A stretch of DNA of 64,000 bases from Zhihengliuella flava (GTDB lineage Bacteria; Actinomycetota; Actinomycetes; Actinomycetales; Micrococcaceae). Under the pieces are notes generated by a model. It saw only the letters and a list, made by a program, of their open reading frames with translations. It was not told where the DNA came from and ran no database searches. The stretch covers positions 1,984,001-2,048,000 of the forward strand of contig NZ_JADOTZ010000001.1 in assembly GCF_015751895.1 (NCBI RefSeq), given 5' to 3'. The position numbers and the translations under genes were made by a program. Positions within the stretch are counted from its first letter, which is position 1. Each line of letters begins with the position of its first letter. Positions 1 to 45,967 of this stretch are shown piece by piece.

Positions 1-915
1 GAAACCGGAAATGGCGCCGCACGCAATGGTGACGAAGAGCAGCGGAATGATGGACGGCGTTCCGTCCGGCACGTTGTGGTTGATGGCCGGCGCCACCATG
101 GTAGGGCCGGAGATGATGATGGCCGTGTACAGGATGCCGAGGGCAATGAACAGCTGCAGGCCGTTGATGTAGTCGCGCGGCTGCAGGAGCATCCATACCG
201 GCAGCAGGGACGCGATGCCCGCGTAGATGAACAGCACTACGATCCAGAAGGCGCCGGCGCTCAGGCCCATGATGGTGTCCGGCAGGACGATCGGGTAGGC
301 ATCGCCCAGCAGCATCAGCGCGTACAGGGCGACGACGCCGACAATCGAGACGATCGGCAGGGACCACTTGAGCTTGTAGATCGCCTGGCCAATCAGCAGC
401 GCCACGATCACGGCGCCCCACGCGGGGATGACGGCGGTCGGCGTGGAGACCAGCAGGCCGGAGATCACGACGGCGAAGGCCGCGTTGACCATCAGCAGCA
501 CCAAGAAGATGACCACCAAGAAGAGGTTCCGGCCGTGGCCACCGATGTAACGGCCGGCGAGCGTGCCAATGGACTGGCCCTTGTGCCGGTTGGACGCCCA
601 CAGCGCGCCGAGGTCGTGCATGCCAGCGAAGAAAATAGTGCCGAGGGTGACCCACAGCAGGGCGGGCAACCAGCCCCAGATGACGGCGATCGCCGGGCCG
701 ACGATGGGCGCCGCGCCCGCCACGGACGTGAAGTGGTGGCCCCACAGCACGTACTTGTTGGTGGGGACGTAGTCGACGCCGTCCGCCAGCTCGTGGGCCG
801 GGGTCTTGTATCCGGCGTCGAGACTGTAGACCTTCTTGGCGAGGAATTTGGAGTAGAGCAGATAGCCCGCGATGATCATCGCGATGCCTATCAGCGCTAG
901 AACAACGGAGTTCAC
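1..915 (-). CDS. cstA: Carbon starvation protein CstA, N-terminal part (3' end outside window)
   Basis: The minus strand from a GTG at 915 reads 305 codons without a stop to the window edge. GAGAAGG lies six bases before the GTG and serves as ribosome binding site. The protein opens with a hydrophobic helix and then carries the CstA hallmark GHHFTSVAGAAPIVGPAIA, followed by WLPALLWVTLGTIFFAGMHD. CstA proteins are multi-pass membrane transporters, about 700 residues in E. coli, linked to pyruvate or peptide uptake during carbon limitation; roughly the first 40 percent is present here. The glyoxylate genes and lutABC further along fit a lifestyle of scavenging small acids, but no direct link is visible. 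Confidence 0.93.
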   Translation of the reverse strand, partial: MNSVVLALIGIAMIIAGYLLYSKFLAKKVYSLDAGYKTPAHELADGVDYVPTNKYVLWGHHFTSVAGAAPIVGPAIAVIWGWLPALLWVTLGTIFFAGMHDLGALWASNRHKGQSIGTLAGRYIGGHGRNLFLVVIFLVLLMVNAAFAVVISGLLVSTPTAVIPAWGAVIVALLIGQAIYKLKWSLPIVSIVGVVALYALMLLGDAYPIVLPDTIMGLSAGAFWIVVLFIYAGIASLLPVWMLLQPRDYINGLQLFIALGILYTAIIISGPTMVAPAINHNVPDGTPSIIPLLFVTIACGAISGF

Positions 916-1016
916 GGCAGACCTTCTCTCAAAGCGTGGTGCGTGGCGGTGGCTGGCGGCGGCGAGTGATGGGCCGCGCCGGTCAGGCCGTCAGCGAGTG
1001 TGATGGTGCTCGCCAC

Positions 1017-1022
1017 ATTCTA
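1017..1022 (-). promoter_or_regulatory. Candidate -10 element of cstA
   Basis: TAGAAT on the minus strand lies about 100 bases upstream of the cstA start. TGTGAC sits 17 bases further upstream as a weak -35. Nothing else in the 235-base gap between cstA and the next gene looks like structure. Confidence 0.3.
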
Positions 1023-1150
1023 GGCTAGACGTGCCCCCGGTCACAGGGCTGGGTGAGGTGTCTGCGCTGGCCGGTCGAAGTGGTCGGTGAGCGGTGGGGC
1101 GCAGGAGTGATGGTGTGGCGTCTTCGTGACGATCCGGCTGACTCGGCGGG

Positions 1151-2023
1151 TCACTCGTTGGGCAGGGGCAGGGCTTCCGCCACCGCGAGGAGGCGTGCGC
1201 GCAGCACGTCGGACCGCTCCGCGAAGTTCTTCTGCTGCCGCACGTAGCTGGCCTTGCCCTCCGGCGTCTCGATCCTGATGGGCTCATACCCCCACTCGGC
1301 CAGATCATAGGGGGAGGCCTGCATGTCCATGGTCCGGATCTCCCAGGCGAGCTCGAAGCAGTCCATGACGAGTTCGCTCGGTACCGCCGGCGTGAGCTTG
1401 TATGCCCACTTGTAGAGGTCCATGTTGGCGTGGAGGCAGCCGGGTTGCTCCAGGTGCCGCTGGGTCTCGCGGCTCGGCTGCAGTTCATTTAGCGGCACCG
1501 CCTCCGGCGTATAGAACCGGAACGCGTCAAAGTGCGTGCACCGGATGCGGTGCTCCTCAACCACCCGATCCGTGCCGGATGCACCGAGCCGCAGCGGCAG
1601 GTACTCGTGCCGGATCCCGTTGGATTCCGATTTATACGCCATCGCCCATTCGTGCAGTCCGAAGCACGCGAACTGGCCCGGACGGCTCGCCGTACCCGCC
1701 AGAATCATGCGGGCAAACCGGACGGCCTCAGCCCGAGCGGCGCTGAACGCATCCACATCAAGACCCACACCGCCGTCGTGCTCCGTGTAGAACTTCCAGC
1801 CGCGGCGTTCCGCCGCCGCTTGACCCTCCAGTACGACGCCGGCGCCCGGGTGCCAGCGCTGCAGCTGGCCGGGCTTCTGGGTGTAGTAGGTGAAGAGGAA
1901 GTCCTCGACGGGATGCTTGCGCTGCGTCCGGCGACGCTCCAAGAACGGCGCGGCAAAGCGCTCTACGCGCGCACGGTGAGCGGCGGCGCGCGGCAGCCAC
2001 GCGGATTCGGGGAGGGAGAGCAT
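1151..2023 (-). CDS. Putative 3-methyladenine DNA glycosylase-like protein (actinobacterial family)
   Basis: The 290-residue protein opens LSLPESAWLPRAAAHRARVE and contains HPVEDFLFTYYTQKPGQLQR followed by WHPGAGVVLEG, a pattern I recall from actinobacterial proteins that automatic pipelines name 3-methyladenine DNA glycosylase. No helix-hairpin-helix motif or catalytic aspartate can be identified with confidence, so the activity remains an annotation tradition rather than something the sequence shows. There is no signal peptide or membrane segment. A -10-like TAAAAT ends eight bases before the ATG with no clear ribosome binding site, which suggests a leaderless transcript. It is a single gene. 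Confidence 0.6.
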   Translation of the reverse strand: MLSLPESAWLPRAAAHRARVERFAAPFLERRRTQRKHPVEDFLFTYYTQKPGQLQRWHPGAGVVLEGQAAAERRGWKFYTEHDGGVGLDVDAFSAARAEAVRFARMILAGTASRPGQFACFGLHEWAMAYKSESNGIRHEYLPLRLGASGTDRVVEEHRIRCTHFDAFRFYTPEAVPLNELQPSRETQRHLEQPGCLHANMDLYKWAYKLTPAVPSELVMDCFELAWEIRTMDMQASPYDLAEWGYEPIRIETPEGKASYVRQQKNFAERSDVLRARLLAVAEALPLPNE

Positions 2024-2058
2024 CGCCTCTATTTTAGGGCAGTGCGCTCGCGTTCACA

Positions 2059-2132
2059 TGGCCCCGTTCTTGGTGCCGCAAAGGTCCGCCTGCCCTGAAT
2101 TTCCGCAAGCGGGCCAGCGAAGAACGGGGCCA
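2059..2132. repeat. 74-nt palindromic element, copy 1
   Basis: A perfect 13-base terminal inverted repeat (TGGCCCCGTTCTT at 2059-2071, its complement at 2120-2132) closes a 74-nt unit. Two other units of exactly 74 nt with the same ends occur at 48112-48185 and 49173-49246. Read on the minus strand, copy 1 shares its first 18 bases with the 48112 copy and the internal GCGGAAATTC with the 49173 copy. It fills part of the 207-base gap between the glycosylase-like gene and aspartate kinase. Confidence 0.75.
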
Positions 2133-2230
2133 AATGGACGGGATCAGCCCCAGCGGCCCCAGCGGCGGCAGGGATGAGCAGCTTGGCCTGGGGGATGAGT
2201 CCCACCGGCCCGGGCCACGCGAGGGAGTGG

Positions 2231-3517
2231 CTAGCGGCCCGTCCCGCCGTAGACGGTGGCCTCGACGTCGGTGTCCAGCCCGAACACCGCGTGGACGGCC
2301 CGCACCGCGTCGTCCAGCTTGTCCGCGTGCGTCACCACGGAGATGCGGATCTCCGAGGTGGAGATCATGTCTACGTTGACGCCGGCCTCGTGCAGGGCCT
2401 GGAAGAACTTGTAGGAGACGCCCGGGTTGGATCGCATGCCTGCGCCGATCAGGGACAACTTGCCCACCTGGTCGTCGTACTCAATGGCCTCGAAGCCCAC
2501 GCGGCTCTGGGCATCACGCAGCGCGTCCAGCGCCTCCTTGCCCTCCACGATAGGCAGGGTGAAGGAGATGTCCGTTTTGTCCTTGCCCGCGGTGGAGACG
2601 TTCTGAACAATCATGTCGATGTTGGAGTGCGCACCCGCGATCACGCCGAAAATCTCGGCGGCCTTGCCGGGCACGTCGGGGACGCCGACGACGGTGACCT
2701 TGGCCTCGGAGCGGTCATGTGCAACGCCGGAGATGATGGGCTGTTCCAAGGGTTCTCCCTCTTGAATCTTGATCTTGTCGTCTTCGCTGGGCAGCACCCA
2801 CGTGCCCTCGTGCTCGCTGAAGGAGGACCGCACGTGCAGCGGCACCCCGAAGCGCCGCGCGTATTCCACGCAGCGCAGGTGCAGGATCTTGGCGCCGGAG
2901 GCCGCGAGCTCCAGCATTTCCTCGCTGGAGATCGTGTCAATCTTCTGGGCCGCGGAAACGATGCGCGGGTCCGCCGTATACACGCCGTCGACGTCCGTGT
3001 AGATCTCACACACGTCCGCGTTCAGTGCCGCCGCCAGCGCCACCGCCGTGGTGTCCGAACCGCCGCGGCCCATGGTGGTGACGTCATTGCTGTCCGGGCT
3101 CATGCCTTGGAACCCGGCCACGATCGCCACGTATCCGCGATCCACCGCCTGGCGCACGCGCTGCGGGGAGACGTCGATGATGCGGGCCTTGCCGTGCACG
3201 GCGTCGGTCATCATGCCGGCCTGGCTGCCCGTGAAGGACACGGCCTTTTCCCCGGCGCCGTCGATGGTCATGGCCAGCAGGGCCATGGACATGCGCTCGC
3301 CGGCGGAGAGGAGCATGTCCATCTCGCGGGCGGGCGGGTCGTCCGTCAGCTGCCCGGCCAAGTCCAGCAGCTCATCCGTGGTGTCACCCATGGCAGAAAC
3401 CACCACGACGACGTCGTTCCCCGCCGCCTTGGTGTCCATAATTCGGCGGGCGACGCGTTTGATGCCCTCGGCATCCGACACCGACGATCCGCCGAACTTC
3501 TGCACAATCAGGCTCAT
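2231..3517 (-). CDS. lysC: Aspartate kinase
   Basis: Phosphorylates L-aspartate with ATP, the first step toward lysine, threonine, methionine and diaminopimelate. The 428-residue protein starts [20 protein letters not shown], containing the KFGGSS nucleotide/aspartate motif, followed by [20 protein letters not shown] and [16 protein letters not shown]. The C-terminal third carries two ACT repeats (near [20 protein letters not shown] and [19 protein letters not shown]), the site of lysine/threonine feedback in this family. Actinobacterial lysC genes often express a separate beta subunit from an internal start; I did not fix one. asd, which usually follows, does not: an unrelated gene lies downstream. 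Confidence 0.97.
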
Positions 3518-3629
3518 GCCGTAGCACTCTCCCAGGGGTTGGTCTGTTTGGGGCGCCGATCAGCGGCGCGGCGTCACGGAGGACACTGCCGAACAGTGTA
3601 GCCATCGGGTGAGTTGGCACCGCGATTTC

Positions 3630-3647
3630 GTGACCGTCAGAGGTCAC
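3630..3647. promoter_or_regulatory. Small palindrome between lysC and the ABC genes
   Basis: GTGACC, six bases, GGTCAC form a perfect inverted repeat in the 248-base divergent gap between lysC and the ABC transporter. It has the size of a dimeric repressor site. No regulator gene lies beside it, so the assignment is tentative. Confidence 0.25.
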
Positions 3648-3765
3648 ATTCTGCGCGGCCGATTTCATCCCACGGGAGGTACTGCCCGCGCCCGGTTGAT
3701 TCCTACAGTAGAGGTCAGGAAGGGGCAGCGGACGTGCTGCCACGGTTCACCTGAGGAGGTCCGCT

Positions 3766-4812
3766 GTGCCAAACACCACAGCGCCGGGTCTGTCCGGCGA
3801 GGGCACGCCACCACCGGGGCCGCAGCGCTCCGGGCACGACGCCGGCGTGGTCGCCGAGGGATTGTCCCGCACCTTTGGCGCGGTGCAGGCGGTGCGCCAC
3901 ATCGACTTCGTGGCGCGCCCGGGCGAGGTGACGGCCCTCATCGGGCCCAACGGCTCCGGCAAGACGACGCTGCTGCTCATGCTCGCGTCCCTGTTGCGGC
4001 CGGACACCGGTTCGGTGCGGATCGGCAGCGTGGACGTCGCGGCGGATCCGCGCGCGGCGCGGGAGCTGATCGGCTGGATGCCGGACACCCTGGGCGTGTG
4101 GGAGACGTTGACTTCCCGCGAGATCCTCACCTCCATGGGCCGCCTCTACGGGATGGAGAAGGCCTCGGCGGCGGCGCGCGCCGACGAGCTGCTGGAGTTG
4201 GTCAAGCTCACGGAACTCTCCGGCCAGCCCTCCCGCGTCCTGTCTCGCGGCCAGCAGCAGCGGCTGTCCTTGGCCCGCGCCCTGATGAATGATCCGCAGG
4301 TGCTGCTCCTCGACGAGCCGGCGTCCGGGTTGGACCCGGGAGCGCGGATTGACCTGCGCAACCTGCTGCGGCGCTTCGCCGCGGAGGGGCGCACCGTCGT
4401 GGTGAGCTCCCACGTCCTTTCCGAGCTGGATGAGATTGCCGACGCCGCCGTGTTCGTGGCGGCGGGCTCCAGCGTGCGGACGCAGACGCTCGCCGAGGCG
4501 GACACGCAGACCCGCCGCTACAGCGTGCGCGGGCTGGACCATACGGCCCTCCTGGAGGCGCTGAATCAGCAGGGCATCGCCTACACGGTGCCGGCGGCCC
4601 AACGCCGCACCGAGGCGCTGATCGACGTCGCGTCCGAGGCGGAGGCGGCCACGGTGCTGCGCGCCCTCGTCGAGGCCGGCGTCGCGGTCGCGGCGTTCGC
4701 CCCCACGGTGGGCGCGCTGGAGGAGACGTACATGAGCTCGGTGTACGCGCAAGAGTCCGGAGGAATCGGCACCGCCAGCGCGGACGCCAAGGATGGGAGG
4801 GATCAGGCATGA
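3766..4812 (+). CDS. ABC transporter ATP-binding protein
   Basis: ATPase of a two-component ABC system, probably an exporter. The 348-residue protein has Walker A GPNGSGKTT (residues 60-68), an ABC signature in the variant form LSRGQQQR (about 159-166) and Walker B VLLLDEPASGLDP (about 176-188), then the H-loop in VVVSSHVLSELDE. The first 30 residues are a Pro/Gly-rich extension and about 120 residues follow the ATPase core, as in CcmA/drug-exporter-type subunits. The GTG at 3766 is chosen because GAGGAGG precedes it. The stop overlaps the permease start by four bases (ATGA), so the two are translationally coupled. The substrate is unknown. Confidence 0.9.
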   Translation: MPNTTAPGLSGEGTPPPGPQRSGHDAGVVAEGLSRTFGAVQAVRHIDFVARPGEVTALIGPNGSGKTTLLLMLASLLRPDTGSVRIGSVDVAADPRAARELIGWMPDTLGVWETLTSREILTSMGRLYGMEKASAAARADELLELVKLTELSGQPSRVLSRGQQQRLSLARALMNDPQVLLLDEPASGLDPGARIDLRNLLRRFAAEGRTVVVSSHVLSELDEIADAAVFVAAGSSVRTQTLAEADTQTRRYSVRGLDHTALLEALNQQGIAYTVPAAQRRTEALIDVASEAEAATVLRALVEAGVAVAAFAPTVGALEETYMSSVYAQESGGIGTASADAKDGRDQA

Positions 4813-7357: not shown

Positions 7358-10300
7358 TCAGGGGTGGTTGATGGGGGTTCCGTCGTGATGGCGTTCCTCG
7401 ATCATGCGCCCGTTGAGGATGCGCTCGATCGCGGCTCGGCCGATCACGGTGGAGTCCTCAATCGCGATGTCGTCGTCGCTGGGAACAAAGTCCGCGTCGT
7501 CAACGGCACCGTAGGACGAGTTTACGGCCCCGCGGCCCGCGGCACCGGAATTCGCGGCGCCCTGCGGTTGGTTCGGTGCCTGACCGGACTCCGCGCCGGG
7601 CGCAGGGGCGGTAGATGCGGCGCCGGCATTCGGCGCTGGCGTCCCAGCGTGCCCCCAACCGTCGGGCGCAGCATCGGGGCGGGAGCCAGCGGCGGGCGGC
7701 GCCCCGTCGGCCGGAGTGCTGGCGCTGGCGGCTGACCCGCTCTCCGCGCCCGCGGCAGCGGAAGGCTGGCCGGTGGGGCGGGGTGATCCGCCGGGCCATC
7801 CGCCGCCGGAAGGTCCACCGTTTTCCGCCTCGGCCTGGGCCAGCAACTGCTGGTAGCGGCTCAGTTTCTTGGCCGGGTCGCGTCGTTCCGGCGCGGGGGC
7901 CGCAGGCTTTTCCTGTGACTGCTGGCGCATGGTGGACGGTAGGGCGGAACCGGCCCACGAGGGCGGCGGGGGAGTCGGTCCAGCCGGTGCAGGAGGAATC
8001 ACGGGAGCTGCTGGGCTCGGGGCCGCCGAGGCAGCTGACGCTGCCGAGCCGGCCGTGGCCGCAGATCCACTCGAACCGGACGTCGTGGCCGAGGTGCCGG
8101 ATGCGGACGATGCCGGTGCCTCGCTGGCGTGATTCCAGCTGGGATCCTCGGCGTCGTACGGCTCGTCATACTCCGGCGGTTCCTCCGGCGGGATCCACCC
8201 GTCGTCGGGCTCGGTAGTGGAGGGCGCTGGCGCCGGCTGTGGCGCTGCCGCTGGTGCTGATGCGGCCGAGCGTTCCGGTGCTGCTGAGTTTTCCGGCGCG
8301 GCCGCGTCGGCTGATGCGGCGGAGGAGGCCGAGTGCGCGGAGGCCGCGGACATGGCCGAGTGGGACGAGTGGCCCTTGGTCCCGGCCGCCTCGACGGGCG
8401 AGACAGCGGAGGCACGGTTTCCCTCGAACGTCGGCTCCGTGGGAGTCGAAGCGCTCGCGGAGTCCGCCGACGTGGTGGCGCCGGCATCGGGCGCTGACTC
8501 CTCCGACGACTCGGCCGCTGACGTGGCGGAGGAGGCGTCGATAGGCGGGAAGTCAGTCCACTGCGGTGCTTCCGGCCGTTCGTAGTGCTCCTGCCGTTGC
8601 GGGGTGGGCTGGAACGGTTGCGGGGCCGGGCGTGAGGCGGCTTCCGGCCGGGGCACGACGCCAGGGTCAGGGTTCGCGGACCGCCCGGAGGTCGGCGCCG
8701 GGCGGCCGGTAGCGGGACGGGCGGAGTCGGAGCCTGCGGACGCCGGCTGGGGCCGGCGATCAGCTTTTGGGCCCGAACCACCCGCGTCAGCGGACCCTCC
8801 CGCGACGACGTCGATCCCGACCTGAACGCCCAGGACCTGATGGACGGCCCATTGCACGAGGGCGACGTTGTCATTGAGGCGCTGGAAGTTGGCCATGGCA
8901 CCGGGGTGGGCGAAGCCGAGGGCCAACGTTCGGCCGTCGAACCCGGTCAGTGACGCGTTCTGTTGGAGGTTCATCCAGACGACCTTGCGCTCGTTCTTGA
9001 TGACCTCGAGGACCTCCGGCCAAGCGCGCCGGAACATCTCAATGGACCCGGCGCCACCCGACGCCGCCCCACCGGATTGCGGTGAGGGCGCTGGCTGGGG
9101 CGCGGCCTGCTCCTGCGGCCCAGACGGTTGCTCGGCGGGCTGTTGAGCTTGGCCCACGCGCGGGCCTGTCTGTTCGGCGGACGGCTGAGGATTTTGCGGG
9201 GCCTGCCGCTGCGGCTCGGCTTCCGGGGCGCGGGCCGGTTCCTGCGGCACGGCAGCCGGCGCAGCGGATTCCTGCTGGGCTGATCGCTGGTCCGGCTGCT
9301 GCTCGGCGGCCTGCTGGCGTGCGGGCTCCTGCTGCGGCTCGGGTGCCACTGCGGTGGACCCCAGCGCGTCGGCATCCGGCACCGTCCAGGCCCCACCCCA
9401 GTCCGCGGTGGGCTCCTCCTGGTGCCGCGGCTCCTGCCGCTGCGGCAGGCGGGACGCGAGCTCCTCGGCCGTCTTGGGAAACGCGGCCTGAGCGGTGCTG
9501 CGCGGCGCGCCGGATTCCGCGGAGTCGGCGGAGGATTGCGCGGCCTCGGCGGCGCCGGAAGAAGCTGCCTCCGCCGGGTTGGCCTCGGGCGCCGGTGCCT
9601 GATGGGACTCCTGCCGTTGCGCCGAGGACTGTTCTGGTGCCTGCGGCTCAGGTTCCGCCACTTGCGGCGCGGAGGGCTGCTCGCGTTCCGGTTGGGCGGG
9701 TGCCTGCGGCTGAGGCTCCGTCACCTGCGGCGCGGAAGGCTGCTTCTGTTCCGCCTGCACGGCCGGTGCGTCGGCCGCCGGCTCCTGCTTAGCCTTGGCC
9801 GCGCGCAGGGCCTCCCGCACGGCCGCCGCGCCGGTGGCGCCCGCCTCCGCACCCGGGTGGACCGCGGTCCCGGACTCGTCCTGATTGGCAGTGCCCTGAC
9901 CGCCCGTGCCGTCGGTCAGCGGTTCCGTGCCGCCGTACGTCAGGCGGCGTTCGATCCGGTCCACGCGCGCGCCGATGCCGCGCTCGCCGGGGTCAGAGGA
10001 GGGCAGTAGCAGCCGGGCGCAAAGGAGCTCGAGGTGCAGGCGCGGGCTGGTGGCGCCCGTCATCTCCGTCAGTGCTTGATTGGTCACGTCGGCCGCGCGG
10101 CTGAGCTCCGCCTGGCCCAAGATGGCGGCCTGCTGCTGCATCCGGGCCAGCTGATCGGCGGGGACGCCGCGGAGGATCTGGGCCGCCGCATCCGGCATGG
10201 CCTTGACGATGATGAGGTCCCGCAGCCGCTCCAGCAGGTCCTCGACGAACCGGCGCGGGTCATGGCCGGTCTGGATGACTCGATCCACCGCGGAGAACAC

Positions 10301-11095
10301 CGTGGCCGCATCCTGAGCGGCCAAGGCATCCACAACGTCGTCGAGCAGCGCCGCGTGCGTGTAGCCGAGCAGGGACACCGCGAGCTCGTAGTCCAGTCCC
10401 TCCGAGCCGGCGCCGGCCATCAGCTGATCGAGCACCGAGAGCGTGTCACGCACGGACCCGCCGCCGGCGCGCAGCACGAGGGAGAGGACGCCCGGCGCCA
10501 CCGGCACGTTCTCCTGCTGGCACAGGCGCTCCAAGTACTCCATGAGCGTCTCCGGCGGCACTAACCGGAAGGGGTAGTGGTGCGTGCGGGAGCGGATGGT
10601 CCCGATGACCTTGTCCGGTTCCGTGGTGGCAAAGACGAACTTGATGTGCTCCGGCGGCTCCTCAACGATCTTGAGCAACGCATTGAAGCCGGCGGACGTG
10701 ACCATGTGGGCCTCGTCAATAATGAAAATCTTGTAGCGGTCCCGCGTCGGCGCAAAGGTGGCCCGCTCGCGCAGATCACGCGCATCGTCGACGCCGCCGT
10801 GGCTGGCCGCGTCGATCTCGATGACATCTAATGAGCCCGGTCCGCCCGTGGCGAGGTCCCGGCAGCTGGCGCACTCGCCGCAGGGGGTATCCGTGGGGCC
10901 CTGCTCACAGTTCAGGCAGCGGGCCAAGATGCGGGCGCTGGTGGTTTTGCCGCAGCCGCGCGGTCCGGAGAAGAGGTAGGCGTGGTTGACGCGGTTCTTA
11001 GACAGCGCCGCCATCAGCGGGGTGGTGACATGCTCCTGCCCGATGACGTCCGCAAAGCTGTCCGGCCGGTATCGGCGATAAAGGGCTGTACTCAC
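7358..11095 (-). CDS. dnaX: DNA polymerase III subunit gamma/tau with very long low-complexity linker
   Basis: Clamp-loader ATPase of the replisome. I start it at GTG 11095 (VSTALYRRYRPDSFADVIGQ), preceded by GGTAGGG; an in-frame TTG at 11113 adds six residues. The AAA+ part (about 1-370) has Walker A GPRGCGKTT (about 44-52), a four-cysteine zinc module (CLNCEQGPTDTPCGECASC), a DEAH-type Walker B in FIIDEAHMVTSAG and the sensor TIRSRTHHYPF. After that come about 300 residues rich in Ala/Gln/Pro/Glu, a folded island (about 680-760, SIEMFRRAWPEVLEVIKNER), some 350 more low-complexity residues rich in Ala/Ser/Pro, and a conserved-looking C-terminus (DDADFVPSDDDIAIEDSTVI). At about 1245 residues it is long for the family. 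Confidence 0.96.
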   Translation of the reverse strand: MSTALYRRYRPDSFADVIGQEHVTTPLMAALSKNRVNHAYLFSGPRGCGKTTSARILARCLNCEQGPTDTPCGECASCRDLATGGPGSLDVIEIDAASHGGVDDARDLRERATFAPTRDRYKIFIIDEAHMVTSAGFNALLKIVEEPPEHIKFVFATTEPDKVIGTIRSRTHHYPFRLVPPETLMEYLERLCQQENVPVAPGVLSLVLRAGGGSVRDTLSVLDQLMAGAGSEGLDYELAVSLLGYTHAALLDDVVDALAAQDAATVFSAVDRVIQTGHDPRRFVEDLLERLRDLIIVKAMPDAAAQILRGVPADQLARMQQQAAILGQAELSRAADVTNQALTEMTGATSPRLHLELLCARLLLPSSDPGERGIGARVDRIERRLTYGGTEPLTDGTGGQGTANQDESGTAVHPGAEAGATGAAAVREALRAAKAKQEPAADAPAVQAEQKQPSAPQVTEPQPQAPAQPEREQPSAPQVAEPEPQAPEQSSAQRQESHQAPAPEANPAEAASSGAAEAAQSSADSAESGAPRSTAQAAFPKTAEELASRLPQRQEPRHQEEPTADWGGAWTVPDADALGSTAVAPEPQQEPARQQAAEQQPDQRSAQQESAAPAAVPQEPARAPEAEPQRQAPQNPQPSAEQTGPRVGQAQQPAEQPSGPQEQAAPQPAPSPQSGGAASGGAGSIEMFRRAWPEVLEVIKNERKVVWMNLQQNASLTGFDGRTLALGFAHPGAMANFQRLNDNVALVQWAVHQVLGVQVGIDVVAGGSADAGGSGPKADRRPQPASAGSDSARPATGRPAPTSGRSANPDPGVVPRPEAASRPAPQPFQPTPQRQEHYERPEAPQWTDFPPIDASSATSAAESSEESAPDAGATTSADSASASTPTEPTFEGNRASAVSPVEAAGTKGHSSHSAMSAASAHSASSAASADAAAPENSAAPERSAASAPAAAPQPAPAPSTTEPDDGWIPPEEPPEYDEPYDAEDPSWNHASEAPASSASGTSATTSGSSGSAATAGSAASAASAAPSPAAPVIPPAPAGPTPPPPSWAGSALPSTMRQQSQEKPAAPAPERRDPAKKLSRYQQLLAQAEAENGGPSGGGWPGGSPRPTGQPSAAAGAESGSAASASTPADGAPPAAGSRPDAAPDGWGHAGTPAPNAGAASTAPAPGAESGQAPNQPQGAANSGAAGRGAVNSSYGAVDDADFVPSDDDIAIEDSTVIGRAAIERILNGRMIEERHHDGTPINHP

Positions 11096-11126: not shown

Positions 11127-11182
11127 TTGCATGCCGCGGCTCAGCGCGTGGGGGCGGGCGCAAAGGTTGTGGACGGAGAGTC
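11127..11182. repeat. Left direct repeat: duplicate of the gluQ 3' end
   Basis: These 56 bases match 12026-12081 at 53 positions. Read on the minus strand they encode DSPSTTFAPAPTR and a TGA, against DSPSATFASARTR and TGA in the intact gluQ. The copy lies 45 bases upstream of dnaX, where the true gluQ end would stand without the insert. I infer that the segment between the copies was inserted and brought its own gluQ tail. Confidence 0.85.
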
Positions 11183-11292
11183 AAATTGGCATTTAATCAA
11201 CTATTCAACCGCTTCGGGTTCAGTTTCTGTGGTTTCGTTTCCAAGGTTTCGTAGTAGAATTGCCACTGCATGCGATTCGAGGGGGAGAACTC

Positions 11293-11973
11293 GTGGAGCA
11301 CCTAGGTGAAAACGTTCGAGCTGGAAAATTTGGATTTCTACTGACGCGTGAGAAGTATGCCATTCCAAATAGCCGTTCTTCCTTTTACTCAAGCCAGTTC
11401 GATGTGGGGGAGGCCGAGGAGTGGCAGGGTACTTACACTGACGAATCTCGACGCTTCTACACCGAGGAGTGGTGTGTGCGACAGCGCGCTAGAGCCTTGG
11501 CGAACTTTGATCTCAATATGCGCTACTTTGAGCAGTTGGGCGGTGCCCATTTTGGGCAAGCCGTTAATCAACTGCTTTCGATCTCACCACGACTGCGATT
11601 TGTCGATGACCTTAAGGCACTTGATGGTGTTGAAGGCGTTTATCTCATGATCCTTGATGACTACAAGCAAATTTATGTTGGTCAGGCGGATGATATGAGG
11701 AAGCGGATCAAGCAGCACTGGAGCGGTGCCAAGCAGTTTGACCGCCTCCTTTTTGGGCCAGTTGAAGTTTCAATACTCTCGATCGATTCATTTCGTGCGC
11801 TGGATACTACTCGAGTGATTGCAGCAAAAACCCGAGCCACTTCGGCGTTAGAGCAGAAGGTTGAGGAAGCCGTGCCAGCGAGTTTCAGGCTAAATCGGCT
11901 TAGTGGAGGTCGTCTCGACTGGATGGAGGAGACTGGCCGTGTGCCATATGGCTTCGGAAGAAGGCTGCAATAG
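11293..11973 (+). CDS. GIY-YIG domain nuclease-like protein in a low-GC insert
   Basis: A 226-residue protein starting at GTG 11293, chosen because GAGGGGGAGA lies six to seven bases upstream. The core is a GIY-YIG-like block: GVYLMIL (about 117-123), then QIYVGQADDMRKRIKQHW, giving the paired G-x-Y and Y-V-G motifs and the basic residues expected of the catalytic arginine region. A glutamate-containing helix (SALEQKVEEAV) follows. The N-terminal 110 residues are unrecognised. GIY-YIG enzymes include homing and restriction nucleases. The gene is on the opposite strand to gluQ and dnaX, its GC content is near 50 percent against about 70 around it, and it lies between 56-bp direct repeats, all signs of transfer. 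A defensive or homing role is only inference. Confidence 0.78.
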   Translation: MEHLGENVRAGKFGFLLTREKYAIPNSRSSFYSSQFDVGEAEEWQGTYTDESRRFYTEEWCVRQRARALANFDLNMRYFEQLGGAHFGQAVNQLLSISPRLRFVDDLKALDGVEGVYLMILDDYKQIYVGQADDMRKRIKQHWSGAKQFDRLLFGPVEVSILSIDSFRALDTTRVIAAKTRATSALEQKVEEAVPASFRLNRLSGGRLDWMEETGRVPYGFGRRLQ

Positions 11974-12025
11974 GGAAATTCTGCGTCGAAGCGGATGATG
12001 TTGGGCTTAGTCAAGGTCCCAAAAT

Positions 12026-12081
12026 TTGCATGCCGCGGCTCAGCGCGTGCGGGCGGACGCAAAGGTTGCGGACGGAGAGTC
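12026..12081. repeat. Right direct repeat, the working gluQ 3' end
   Basis: The second copy of the 56-bp repeat, covering the last 14 codons of gluQ with its TGA (12040-12042). It differs from the left copy at three positions. Together the two copies delimit an 843-bp insert. Confidence 0.85.
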
Positions 12082-12975
12082 CAGCACCCACGGCTCGCGC
12101 GGCAGAGCCGCGGGATCGAAGGCGTCGACCGCCTGGGCCAACGGGCCCTGCGGCAGGCCCAGGGACGCCAACAGGACATCGCGCACCCGGGCTGCCGTGA
12201 CGGCGTCGTACTCCACCGCATCGACCGTGCGTGGGGCCGACAAGTCCGCCAGCGTCACCGCCCCGTCCCGCTTAGCCAGCCGCTGGCCCGCTGCGTTCAG
12301 CACCAGCGGCACGTGCGCATACTCGGGCAGCGGGACCCCGAGCAGGCCAGCGAGGTAGGCCTGACGCGGGGTGGACGGCAGCAGGTCGTCGCCGCGCACC
12401 ACCTGATCGACCCCCTGCAGCGCGTCGTCGACCACCACCGCAAAGTTGTAGGCAAAGGTGCCGTCGTTGCGGCGGATCACGAAGTCGTCCACCACCCCCG
12501 TGTAGGCCCCGGCGAGGGCGTCCGTCACCGTGAACTCCTCGGCCTCGGCGCGGAGCCGCCACGCGGCGGGACGGGTCCGACGGCGGTCGGCCCGCTCGGC
12601 CTCGGAGAGAGCGCGGCACGTGCCGGGGTAGGAGCCGGGCGCGGCGTGCGGGGCGCGCGGGGCCTCGGCGATATCCCGGCGGCTGCAGAAGCATTCGTAG
12701 AGCAGGCCCGCGTCGGAGAGCCGACCAAACGCGGCGTCGAACCCGGCGAGCCGGTCCGTCTGACGGACGACGTCACCGTCCCAGTCCAGCCCGATCGCGG
12801 CGAGGTCCCGCAACTGCTCCGCCTCGGCCCCGGCGCGGGCACGGTCCAAGTCTTCAACGCGGAGGAGAAACTCGCGGCCGGTGGAGCGGGCGAACAACCA
12901 GGCCAGCAGGGCCGTGCGGAGATTGCCGACGTGCAGCTCACCGGACGGGCTCGGGGCGAATCGACCAGCCGGCAT
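12040..12975 (-). CDS. gluQ: Glutamyl-Q tRNA(Asp) synthetase
   Basis: Charges glutamate onto the queuosine base of tRNA(Asp). The 311-residue protein lacks the anticodon-binding half of GluRS, the usual GluQ-RS layout. It has the HIGH-like signature (RFAPSPSGELHVGNLRTALL), the class I VEDLDRARAG block and the KRDG form of KMSKS (QRLAKRDGAVTL, about residue 230). A zinc cluster is suggested by Cys residues near ECFCSRRDIA. The frame stays open upstream to 13275, but that stretch crosses the SRP RNA gene; ATG 12975 with GAAAGGA in front is the start. The 3' end is the copy bordering the GIY-YIG insert. Confidence 0.93.
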   Translation of the reverse strand: MPAGRFAPSPSGELHVGNLRTALLAWLFARSTGREFLLRVEDLDRARAGAEAEQLRDLAAIGLDWDGDVVRQTDRLAGFDAAFGRLSDAGLLYECFCSRRDIAEAPRAPHAAPGSYPGTCRALSEAERADRRRTRPAAWRLRAEAEEFTVTDALAGAYTGVVDDFVIRRNDGTFAYNFAVVVDDALQGVDQVVRGDDLLPSTPRQAYLAGLLGVPLPEYAHVPLVLNAAGQRLAKRDGAVTLADLSAPRTVDAVEYDAVTAARVRDVLLASLGLPQGPLAQAVDAFDPAALPREPWVLDSPSATFASARTR

Positions 12976-41891: not shown

Positions 41892-41932
41892 AAGGGCGTG
41901 GCCCCGCACAACGTGTGCGGGGCCACGCCCTT
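41892..41932 (+). terminator. Terminator of the rhaI-rhaB operon (copy A)
   Basis: A perfect 19-bp stem (AAGGGCGTGGCCCCGCACA and its complement) with loop ACG, 16 bases after rhaB. The stem and 42 bases downstream are repeated at 45884-45967. Confidence 0.9.
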
Positions 41933-41974
41933 TCTGTGTTGGGTGACCGCGTGATTGGGCCGCGGCCGTGGCGA
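41894..41974. repeat. Left direct repeat of the IclR/fusion/permease cassette
   Basis: 81 bases (terminator stem plus TTTCTGTGTTGGGTGACCGC and following bases) match 45884-45967 with three or four base changes and three single-base length differences. It ends six bases before the iclR stop, so the cassette begins here. Confidence 0.85.
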
Positions 41975-45883: not shown

Positions 45884-45967
45884 GGGCGTGGCCCCCGCAC
45901 AACGTGTGCGGGGGCCACGCCCTTTCTGTGTTGGGTGACCGCGTGGATGGGACCACGGCCGTGGCGA
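45884..45967. repeat. Right direct repeat of the cassette, with terminator copy B
   Basis: 84 bases matching 41894-41974. The stem here is GGGCGTGGCCCCCGCACA with its complement (18 bp, loop ACG); compared with copy A both arms carry one extra C/G, a compensated change that keeps the stem perfect. It lies 26 bases after the small membrane-protein gene and can end the cassette transcript. Confidence 0.85.

What the first reader, a model, noticed from the sequence alone, without database searches (positions are those of the whole stretch)
11127..12081. GIY-YIG nuclease island carrying its own gluQ 3' end
An 843-bp, roughly 50 percent GC segment with one GIY-YIG-like gene lies between 56-bp direct repeats (53 of 56 identical). 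The repeats are two versions of the gluQ C-terminus; both encode an intact ending (DSPSATFASARTR and DSPSTTFAPAPTR). The intact gene uses the copy next to it, while the other lies 45 bases from dnaX, where the ancestral end would be. This is the pattern of an element that inserts at a gene's 3' end and restores it. No integrase or transposase is present, so the nuclease itself may drive spread, as in homing.
Basis: partly seen in the sequence, partly recalled or inferred. Interest (0 to 1): 0.78.

Follow-up and report, generated by a model that had tools for sequence, protein, structure and literature searches.

The report
Defence gene wedged into gluQ tail
A single gene for a nuclease of a phage-defence family has been inserted right at the end of a bacterial housekeeping gene, leaving two copies of that gene's last codons so the gene stays intact, and the same arrangement turns up around a relative of the nuclease in another genus at a different gene.

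Summary
Two 56-bp copies of the gluQ 3' end (53/56) flank an 843-bp, 50% GC segment with one GIY-YIG gene; no third copy was found in the genome. All 4 held genus mates have empty sites: gluQ is followed directly by dnaX.

The gene is not a recognised homing nuclease. It matches the single-gene anti-phage family Uzume (PADLOC UzuA, E 1e-76), also found on plasmids and in viral contigs.

A second, independent case appeared. In another genus (G639), uzuA lies between two copies (30/38) of the 3' end of a small gene between umuC and a DNA ligase. In 3 of 20 related loci the ligase follows that gene directly. Again the unit is uzuA alone, without an integrase.

Of 36 uzuA loci scanned, 32 show no flanking repeat, and similar repeats flank some non-nuclease genes. 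So insertion with gene-end restoration is well supported, but nuclease-driven spread is not shown. My preferred reading is an integrase-free single-gene defence insertion through a gene-tail repeat; homing-like spread by UzuA is the bold rival.

The parts
11127..11182 (-). Left (dnaX-side) copy of the gluQ 3' end; relic of the ancestral end (DSPSTTFAPAPTR*), no longer attached to gluQ
   Evidence: stop codon 45 bases from the dnaX start, comparable to the 34-48 bp empty sites of genus mates; downstream junction GCGTTGGGTAGGGTTG shared with 3 of the 4
11183..12025 (.). Inserted unit, 843 bp, 50.1% GC, absent from the site in the 4 genus mates
11293..11973 (+). uzuA: Uzume-family GIY-YIG protein, 226 aa, GTG start after GGGGGAG; convergent with gluQ
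   Evidence: Pfam GIY-YIG 27.3 bits; PADLOC UzuA E 1e-76; family-invariant residues present
12026..12081 (-). Right copy of the gluQ 3' end, used by the intact gene (DSPSATFASARTR*)
12040..12975 (-). gluQ (tRNA glutamyl-Q(34) synthetase), host gene of the insertion, intact
   Evidence: NCBIfam equivalog
7358..11095 (-). dnaX, ancestral downstream neighbour of gluQ

Best explanation
This is a single-gene defence insertion. A uzuA (Uzume) gene entered the 3' end of gluQ without an integrase or transposase of its own. Shown: the unit is uzuA alone; the site is empty in genus mates; the gene end is present twice; gluQ now reads through the copy next to it, while the other copy is stranded beside dnaX; and a uzuA homologue in another genus sits the same way at another gene. 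Inferred: the incoming DNA carried uzuA joined to a copy of the gene's tail (from a conspecific that already had the element, or as an excised circle). It entered by recombination in that short tail, giving tail-uzuA-tail, so the insertion leaves the host gene intact. Recombination between the two tails could remove or re-circularise it. UzuA would be carried and kept for phage defence rather than for homing.
For: Repeat and unit. Empty sites in 4/4 held genus mates. UzuA family. Family members on plasmids and in viral contigs. Second independent 3'-end insertion with uzuA alone between the copies. Repeats of local sequence also flank non-nuclease units: an 81/84-bp repeat round a 4-kb regulator/transporter cassette in this window, whose genes were not found after rhaB in 11 relatives, and genes beside uzuA in L114 and L102. 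This suggests a general short-repeat route. The genome has 4 matches to the tyrosine-recombinase family PF00589, none in the window, and no further copy of the 56-bp site.
Against: No strain-level empty site was available, so the donor tail cannot be traced. The primary event that first joined uzuA to a gluQ tail is not explained by simple recombination. In the second case too, uzuA alone is the unit, which fits a self-moving gene at least as well. 0 of 317 other genes tested in 464 kb of this genome have such close flanking repeats, so the route is rare for ordinary genes here. The 4-kb cassette has no clean empty site: its far neighbour was not found after rhaB in relatives either. Phage defence was not tested.
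Confidence: 0.5

Rival explanations
1. Homing-like spread driven by UzuA itself. The GIY-YIG nuclease cuts near the 3' end of a target gene in uzuA-less cells and repair copies uzuA together with a replacement gene tail, as fungal mitochondrial mobile ORFs do.
For: The unit is a single GIY-YIG gene in both clear cases, at two unrelated genes in two genera, both times convergent with the host gene. Family-invariant GIY-YIG-type residues are kept. The best PDB neighbours of the model include the UvrC GIY-YIG domain and, more weakly, I-TevI (none with E <= 0.001). Mitochondrial mORFs, one of them GIY-YIG in atp9, insert with a replacement C-terminus (PMC3630166, passages read).
Against: 32 of 36 uzuA loci scanned lack a flanking repeat above their shuffles. 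The family is annotated as defence, not homing. Two single genes beside uzuA and a 4-kb cassette without a nuclease also have flanking repeats. No shared target motif between the two sites was tested for.
Confidence: 0.27
2. Site-specific integration by a recombinase acting in trans or since lost; the 56-bp repeats are att sites overlapping a gene's 3' end.
For: Direct repeats at a gene 3' end that restore the gene are the classical anatomy of such islands (general knowledge). The genome has 4 PF00589 matches; the two read in full (L137, L138) have phage-integrase domains.
Against: No recombinase in the 843-bp unit or between the G639 repeats. No third copy of the site in the genome. Two 24-base patterns from the repeat have no exact match in IMG/VR, and the 1-kb region has no match in the phage collection. 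The G639 repeat has a different sequence. Serine recombinases and transposases elsewhere in the genome were not searched for.
Confidence: 0.15
3. Local rearrangement only: the gluQ tail was duplicated by chance during an illegitimate insertion of uzuA DNA, with no recurring mechanism.
For: 32 of 36 uzuA loci have no repeat above their shuffles.
Against: The second case has the same geometry and an in-frame, stop-anchored repeat. None of 10 other enlarged gluQ-dnaX intervals shows a repeat of the gluQ end (one scored just above its shuffles, but that match lies inside the gene body).
Confidence: 0.08

Closest known systems
Uzume anti-phage system (UzuA, PADLOC PDLC03975)
   Same: Near-full-length match of the protein, E 1e-76; relatives on chromosomes, plasmids and viral contigs
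   Different: Placement at a host gene's 3' end with a restored gene tail is not mentioned in the Uzume passages I read; defence not tested here
Fungal mitochondrial mobile ORFs (mORFs) with C-terminal duplication (Glomus atp6/atp9/cox2/nad3, Allomyces atp6)
   Same: Nuclease gene between two copies of a host gene's C-terminal end, the host using the inserted copy, the native end downstream (PMC3630166, passages; C-terminal duplications near nuclease ORFs also in PMC6279837, one passage)
   Different: Here bacterial, nuclease gene convergent with its host gene, protein of a defence family, cleavage and mobility untested
Integrase islands in tRNA or gene 3' ends (general knowledge)
   Same: Direct repeats restoring the gene end
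   Different: No integrase in the unit and only one cargo gene

Membership tests
Uzume (UzuA) | Near-full-length match to the UzuA profile | tested here: met
   256 bits, residues 8-220 of 237 (counted from the TTG) to profile 48-252 of 277; PADLOC output gives no curated cut-off
Uzume (UzuA) | Protects against phage | not testable with these tools
   needs an assay
GIY-YIG superfamily | GIY-YIG domain above Pfam cut-off with conserved residues | tested here: met
   27.3 vs cut-off 22.6 bits; family-invariant Y, G, H and E residues present
Homing endonuclease / mobile ORF | Absent from cognate empty alleles | tested here: met
   4 of 4 held genus mates empty; genus level only, not strain level
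Homing endonuclease / mobile ORF | Cuts the empty site specifically | not testable with these tools
   needs purified protein
Homing endonuclease / mobile ORF | Recurrent gene-end duplication around family members | tested here: inconclusive
   2 of 36 loci clear; 1 marginal in-frame candidate (L031, reached by 4 of 2000 shuffles)
Tyrosine-integrase island | Integrase within the element | tested here: not met
   none in the unit; the 4 PF00589 matches of the genome all lie outside the 64-kb window

The most novel reading that the evidence does not exclude
UzuA-family GIY-YIG proteins are both phage-defence nucleases and gene-end homing elements of bacteria: they invade the 3' ends of housekeeping genes as one-gene units and pay the host back with a replacement gene tail, the bacterial counterpart of mitochondrial mobile ORFs.
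Probability: 0.22. Interest if true: 0.85.

Novelty: new variant of a known kind. Interest (0 to 1): 0.55.

Why it matters
Single-gene defence systems are scattered across genomes, and how they move without an integrase or transposase is often unclear (general knowledge). Two independent insertions of the same defence family into gene ends, each leaving the host gene intact, give a concrete, testable route. If the nuclease drives it, defence and selfish homing could be one activity.

Tried and rejected
Phage and plasmid origin of the whole island: the 1-kb region has no DNA match in phages and one weak coding match in plasmids; two 24-base patterns from the repeat have no exact match in IMG/VR. 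A hotspot at gluQ-dnaX: 10 other family genomes with intervals of 766-2588 bp carry other reading frames and no repeat of the gluQ end. One (L159) scored 15.5 against a shuffle maximum of 14, but the match lies about 100 bp inside gluQ, so I do not count it.

L007/L027 (G114): the 420-bp repeat beside uzuA is an internal repeat of the neighbouring long gene, not a flank of uzuA. L063 (G671): a perfect 33-bp repeat flanks uzuA, but the locus holds transposase-like ORFs (by eye), so it is not counted as a gene-end case. L004: uzuA between mraY-like and ftsW-like genes (by eye) ends in a hydrophobic tail that might be an old mraY end; no family hit for the 31-aa peptide and no relatives reachable. 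L005: uzuA is convergent with an asnS-like gene (by eye), no tail copy seen. Structure: AlphaFold model, mean pLDDT 81.4; no PDB match with E <= 0.001. Pfam gave no family for the small host protein in G639 and none for its UzuA at E <= 0.01, although PADLOC gave UzuA. Weak UzuA matches in L025, L026, L055, L056 and L100 were not scanned for repeats. Literature: no held paper has both Uzume and GIY-YIG; 'UzuA' gave 22 papers, nearly all off topic in the 20 listed, one on phage defence (PMC13335696, listing only). Homology-facilitated illegitimate recombination was seen in a listing only.

Full report
Check of the observation. The two 56-bp repeats (11127-11182, 12026-12081; 53/56) are real. 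No shuffle of 2000 reached their score (first-order Markov resampling of both flanks), and a degenerate pattern with up to 3 mismatches finds only these two copies in the genome. Between them lie 843 bp at 50.1% GC, in a window of 68.1% GC. gluQ (12040-12975, minus strand; NCBIfam GluQRS equivalog) ends in the right copy. The left copy also ends with a stop codon, 45 bases before dnaX. The gene between them reads best from GTG 11293 (226 aa).

The site in relatives. In all 4 other held genomes of the genus, gluQ is followed directly by dnaX, with 34-48 bp between the gluQ stop and the dnaX TALYRR codons. The stretch GCGTTGGGTAGGGTTG before dnaX is shared by three of them and by the left copy's side of the window. 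In the family, a reading by eye of two place lists, each cut at its end and so incomplete, gives dozens of genomes with gaps of about 20-90 bp. I re-examined 11 with longer gaps: 10 intervals of 766-2588 bp and one of 157 bp. The 10 long ones hold other reading frames and no repeat of the gluQ end; one scored slightly above its 100 shuffles, from within the gluQ body. At the one tail site that can be compared with relatives, the left copy keeps the residue of three genus mates (PST) and the right copy differs (PSA). This fits the left copy being the old end.

What the gene is. Pfam gives GIY-YIG (27.3 bits, cut-off 22.6). PADLOC gives UzuA, the Uzume protein, over most of the length (256 bits). 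NCBIfam and PHROGs give only weak hits, most of them to GIY-YIG proteins such as UvrC or to families of unknown function. 15 of 395 genomes in the family sample matched the profile, at least two of them only weakly and one with a broken gene; 6 of 269 in a second family, one weakly. Uzume is listed among systems of unknown mechanism enriched in Actinobacteria (PMC10482375, one passage read) and as mostly plasmid-borne in the B. cereus group (PMC11811056, two passages). That Uzume was validated against phages is recalled, not read here.

A second insertion of the same kind. I scanned the flanks of 36 uzuA loci for direct repeats (23, 5, 8; these include two nearly identical viral loci, one truncated gene, one broken gene and one partial match). 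Four exceeded all of their 100-200 shuffles: the window, L061 (G639), L063 (G671) and L031 (G055). With 2000 shuffles the first three were still never reached, and L031 was reached by 4, which is not significant over 36 loci; its repeat is in frame with the end of the convergent reading frame. L063 has a perfect 33-bp repeat beside transposase-like ORFs and is a different type. L061 is the important one. The order there is umuC, a 103-aa gene, uzuA, DNA ligase, with uzuA convergent with the small gene (coordinates are those of the reverse complement of L061). The repeat (30/38) starts at the small gene's stop codon in both copies and reads in frame: EQWLLESISDD* in the gene and EQRLVESTGDD* beside the ligase. 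One search looked at 21 loci with this small gene, one of them G639 itself. Of the 20 others, 3 (L067, L070, L078) have a ligase match beginning 31-47 bp after the start of the stop codon, an empty site; L077 has it 684 bp downstream; 4 have a ligase-like hit only upstream; 12 have none in the 1.5 kb held. The used copy agrees better with the relatives' endings and the stranded copy has drifted, as expected if only the first is under selection. Pfam confirms the umuC-type and ligase neighbours and gives no family for the small protein. PADLOC confirms UzuA there.

Controls. With a narrower window and no per-gene shuffles, 318 genes from 464 kb of the window's genome gave one score of 18 or more, namely this uzuA. 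285 genes from the relatives' loci (uzuA genes included) gave four: the L061 uzuA and three others. Two of those three are genes directly beside uzuA with repeated upstream leaders (L114, about 140 columns; L102, 41 bp); the third lies within a long reading frame in L103. A repeat search of the same 464 kb (35 bp or more, 78% or more, spacing 300-4000) gave three pairs: this one, one inside an ABC-transporter-like reading frame, and an 81/84-bp repeat with a terminator-like hairpin in the window (41894-41974, 45884-45967) that flanks a 4-kb cassette of an IclR regulator, an oxidoreductase/RraA protein and a DctM transporter. The roughly 1.5 kb after rhaB in the 11 relatives inspected, 4 of them genus mates, holds none of these genes, but neither does it hold the gene that follows the cassette, so this is not a clean empty site. 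So integrase-free insertions flanked by local repeats are probably not confined to nuclease genes.

Mechanism. Shown: an integrase-free, single-gene insertion at a gene 3' end with restoration of the end, twice in one protein family. Inferred: how it moves. Recombination through the tail copy explains tail-uzuA-tail and the spread of an existing element, but not the first joining. Homing by UzuA would explain the recurrence and has a close structural precedent in mitochondrial mobile ORFs (PMC3630166, passages). However, 32 of 36 uzuA loci lack the footprint and I found no report of cleavage in the few passages and listings seen. I put the passive defence-cassette route at 0.5, homing at 0.27, a trans-acting recombinase at 0.15 and a one-off rearrangement at 0.08.

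Structure. An AlphaFold model from 11 sequences (mean pLDDT 81.4) has the UvrC GIY-YIG domain as best PDB neighbour, then a plant glutaredoxin N-terminal domain and I-TevI, but no match with E <= 0.001. Pfam names no domain in the stretch before the GIY-YIG match.

Noticed in passing
window 41894-41974 and 45884-45967: An 81/84-bp direct repeat (93%) holding a terminator-like hairpin (by eye) flanks a 4-kb IclR-RraA/oxidoreductase-DctM cassette after rhaB; none of the 11 relatives inspected has these genes in the roughly 1.5 kb after rhaB.
   Followed up: partly
L004 4445-5170: uzuA sits between mraY-like and ftsW-like genes (by eye) in a Bacilli MAG and ends in a hydrophobic tail outside the UzuA profile match (1-204 of 241), possibly an old mraY end fused in frame.
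   Followed up: partly
L114 3153-3291 and 3849-3988; L102 4572-4612 and 5506-5546: uzuA and the gene before it share similar upstream leaders, as if single accessory genes were added behind repeated leader sequences.
   Followed up: no
L031 (reverse complement) 7503-7525 and 8603-8625: A 23-bp repeat (87%) flanks uzuA in G055; it reads in frame with the end of the convergent reading frame (GSCWCGQ vs GGCRCGE), a marginal third gene-end case.
   Followed up: partly
L034 (G382) and L060 (G587): Other GIY-YIG-like genes (by eye, not scanned) lie next to uzuA, suggesting clusters of such nucleases.
   Followed up: no
L027 8752-10689: The long gene convergent with uzuA in G114 carries a 420-bp internal repeat at 99.5% identity, and uzuA's frame runs into its 3' end.
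   Followed up: no
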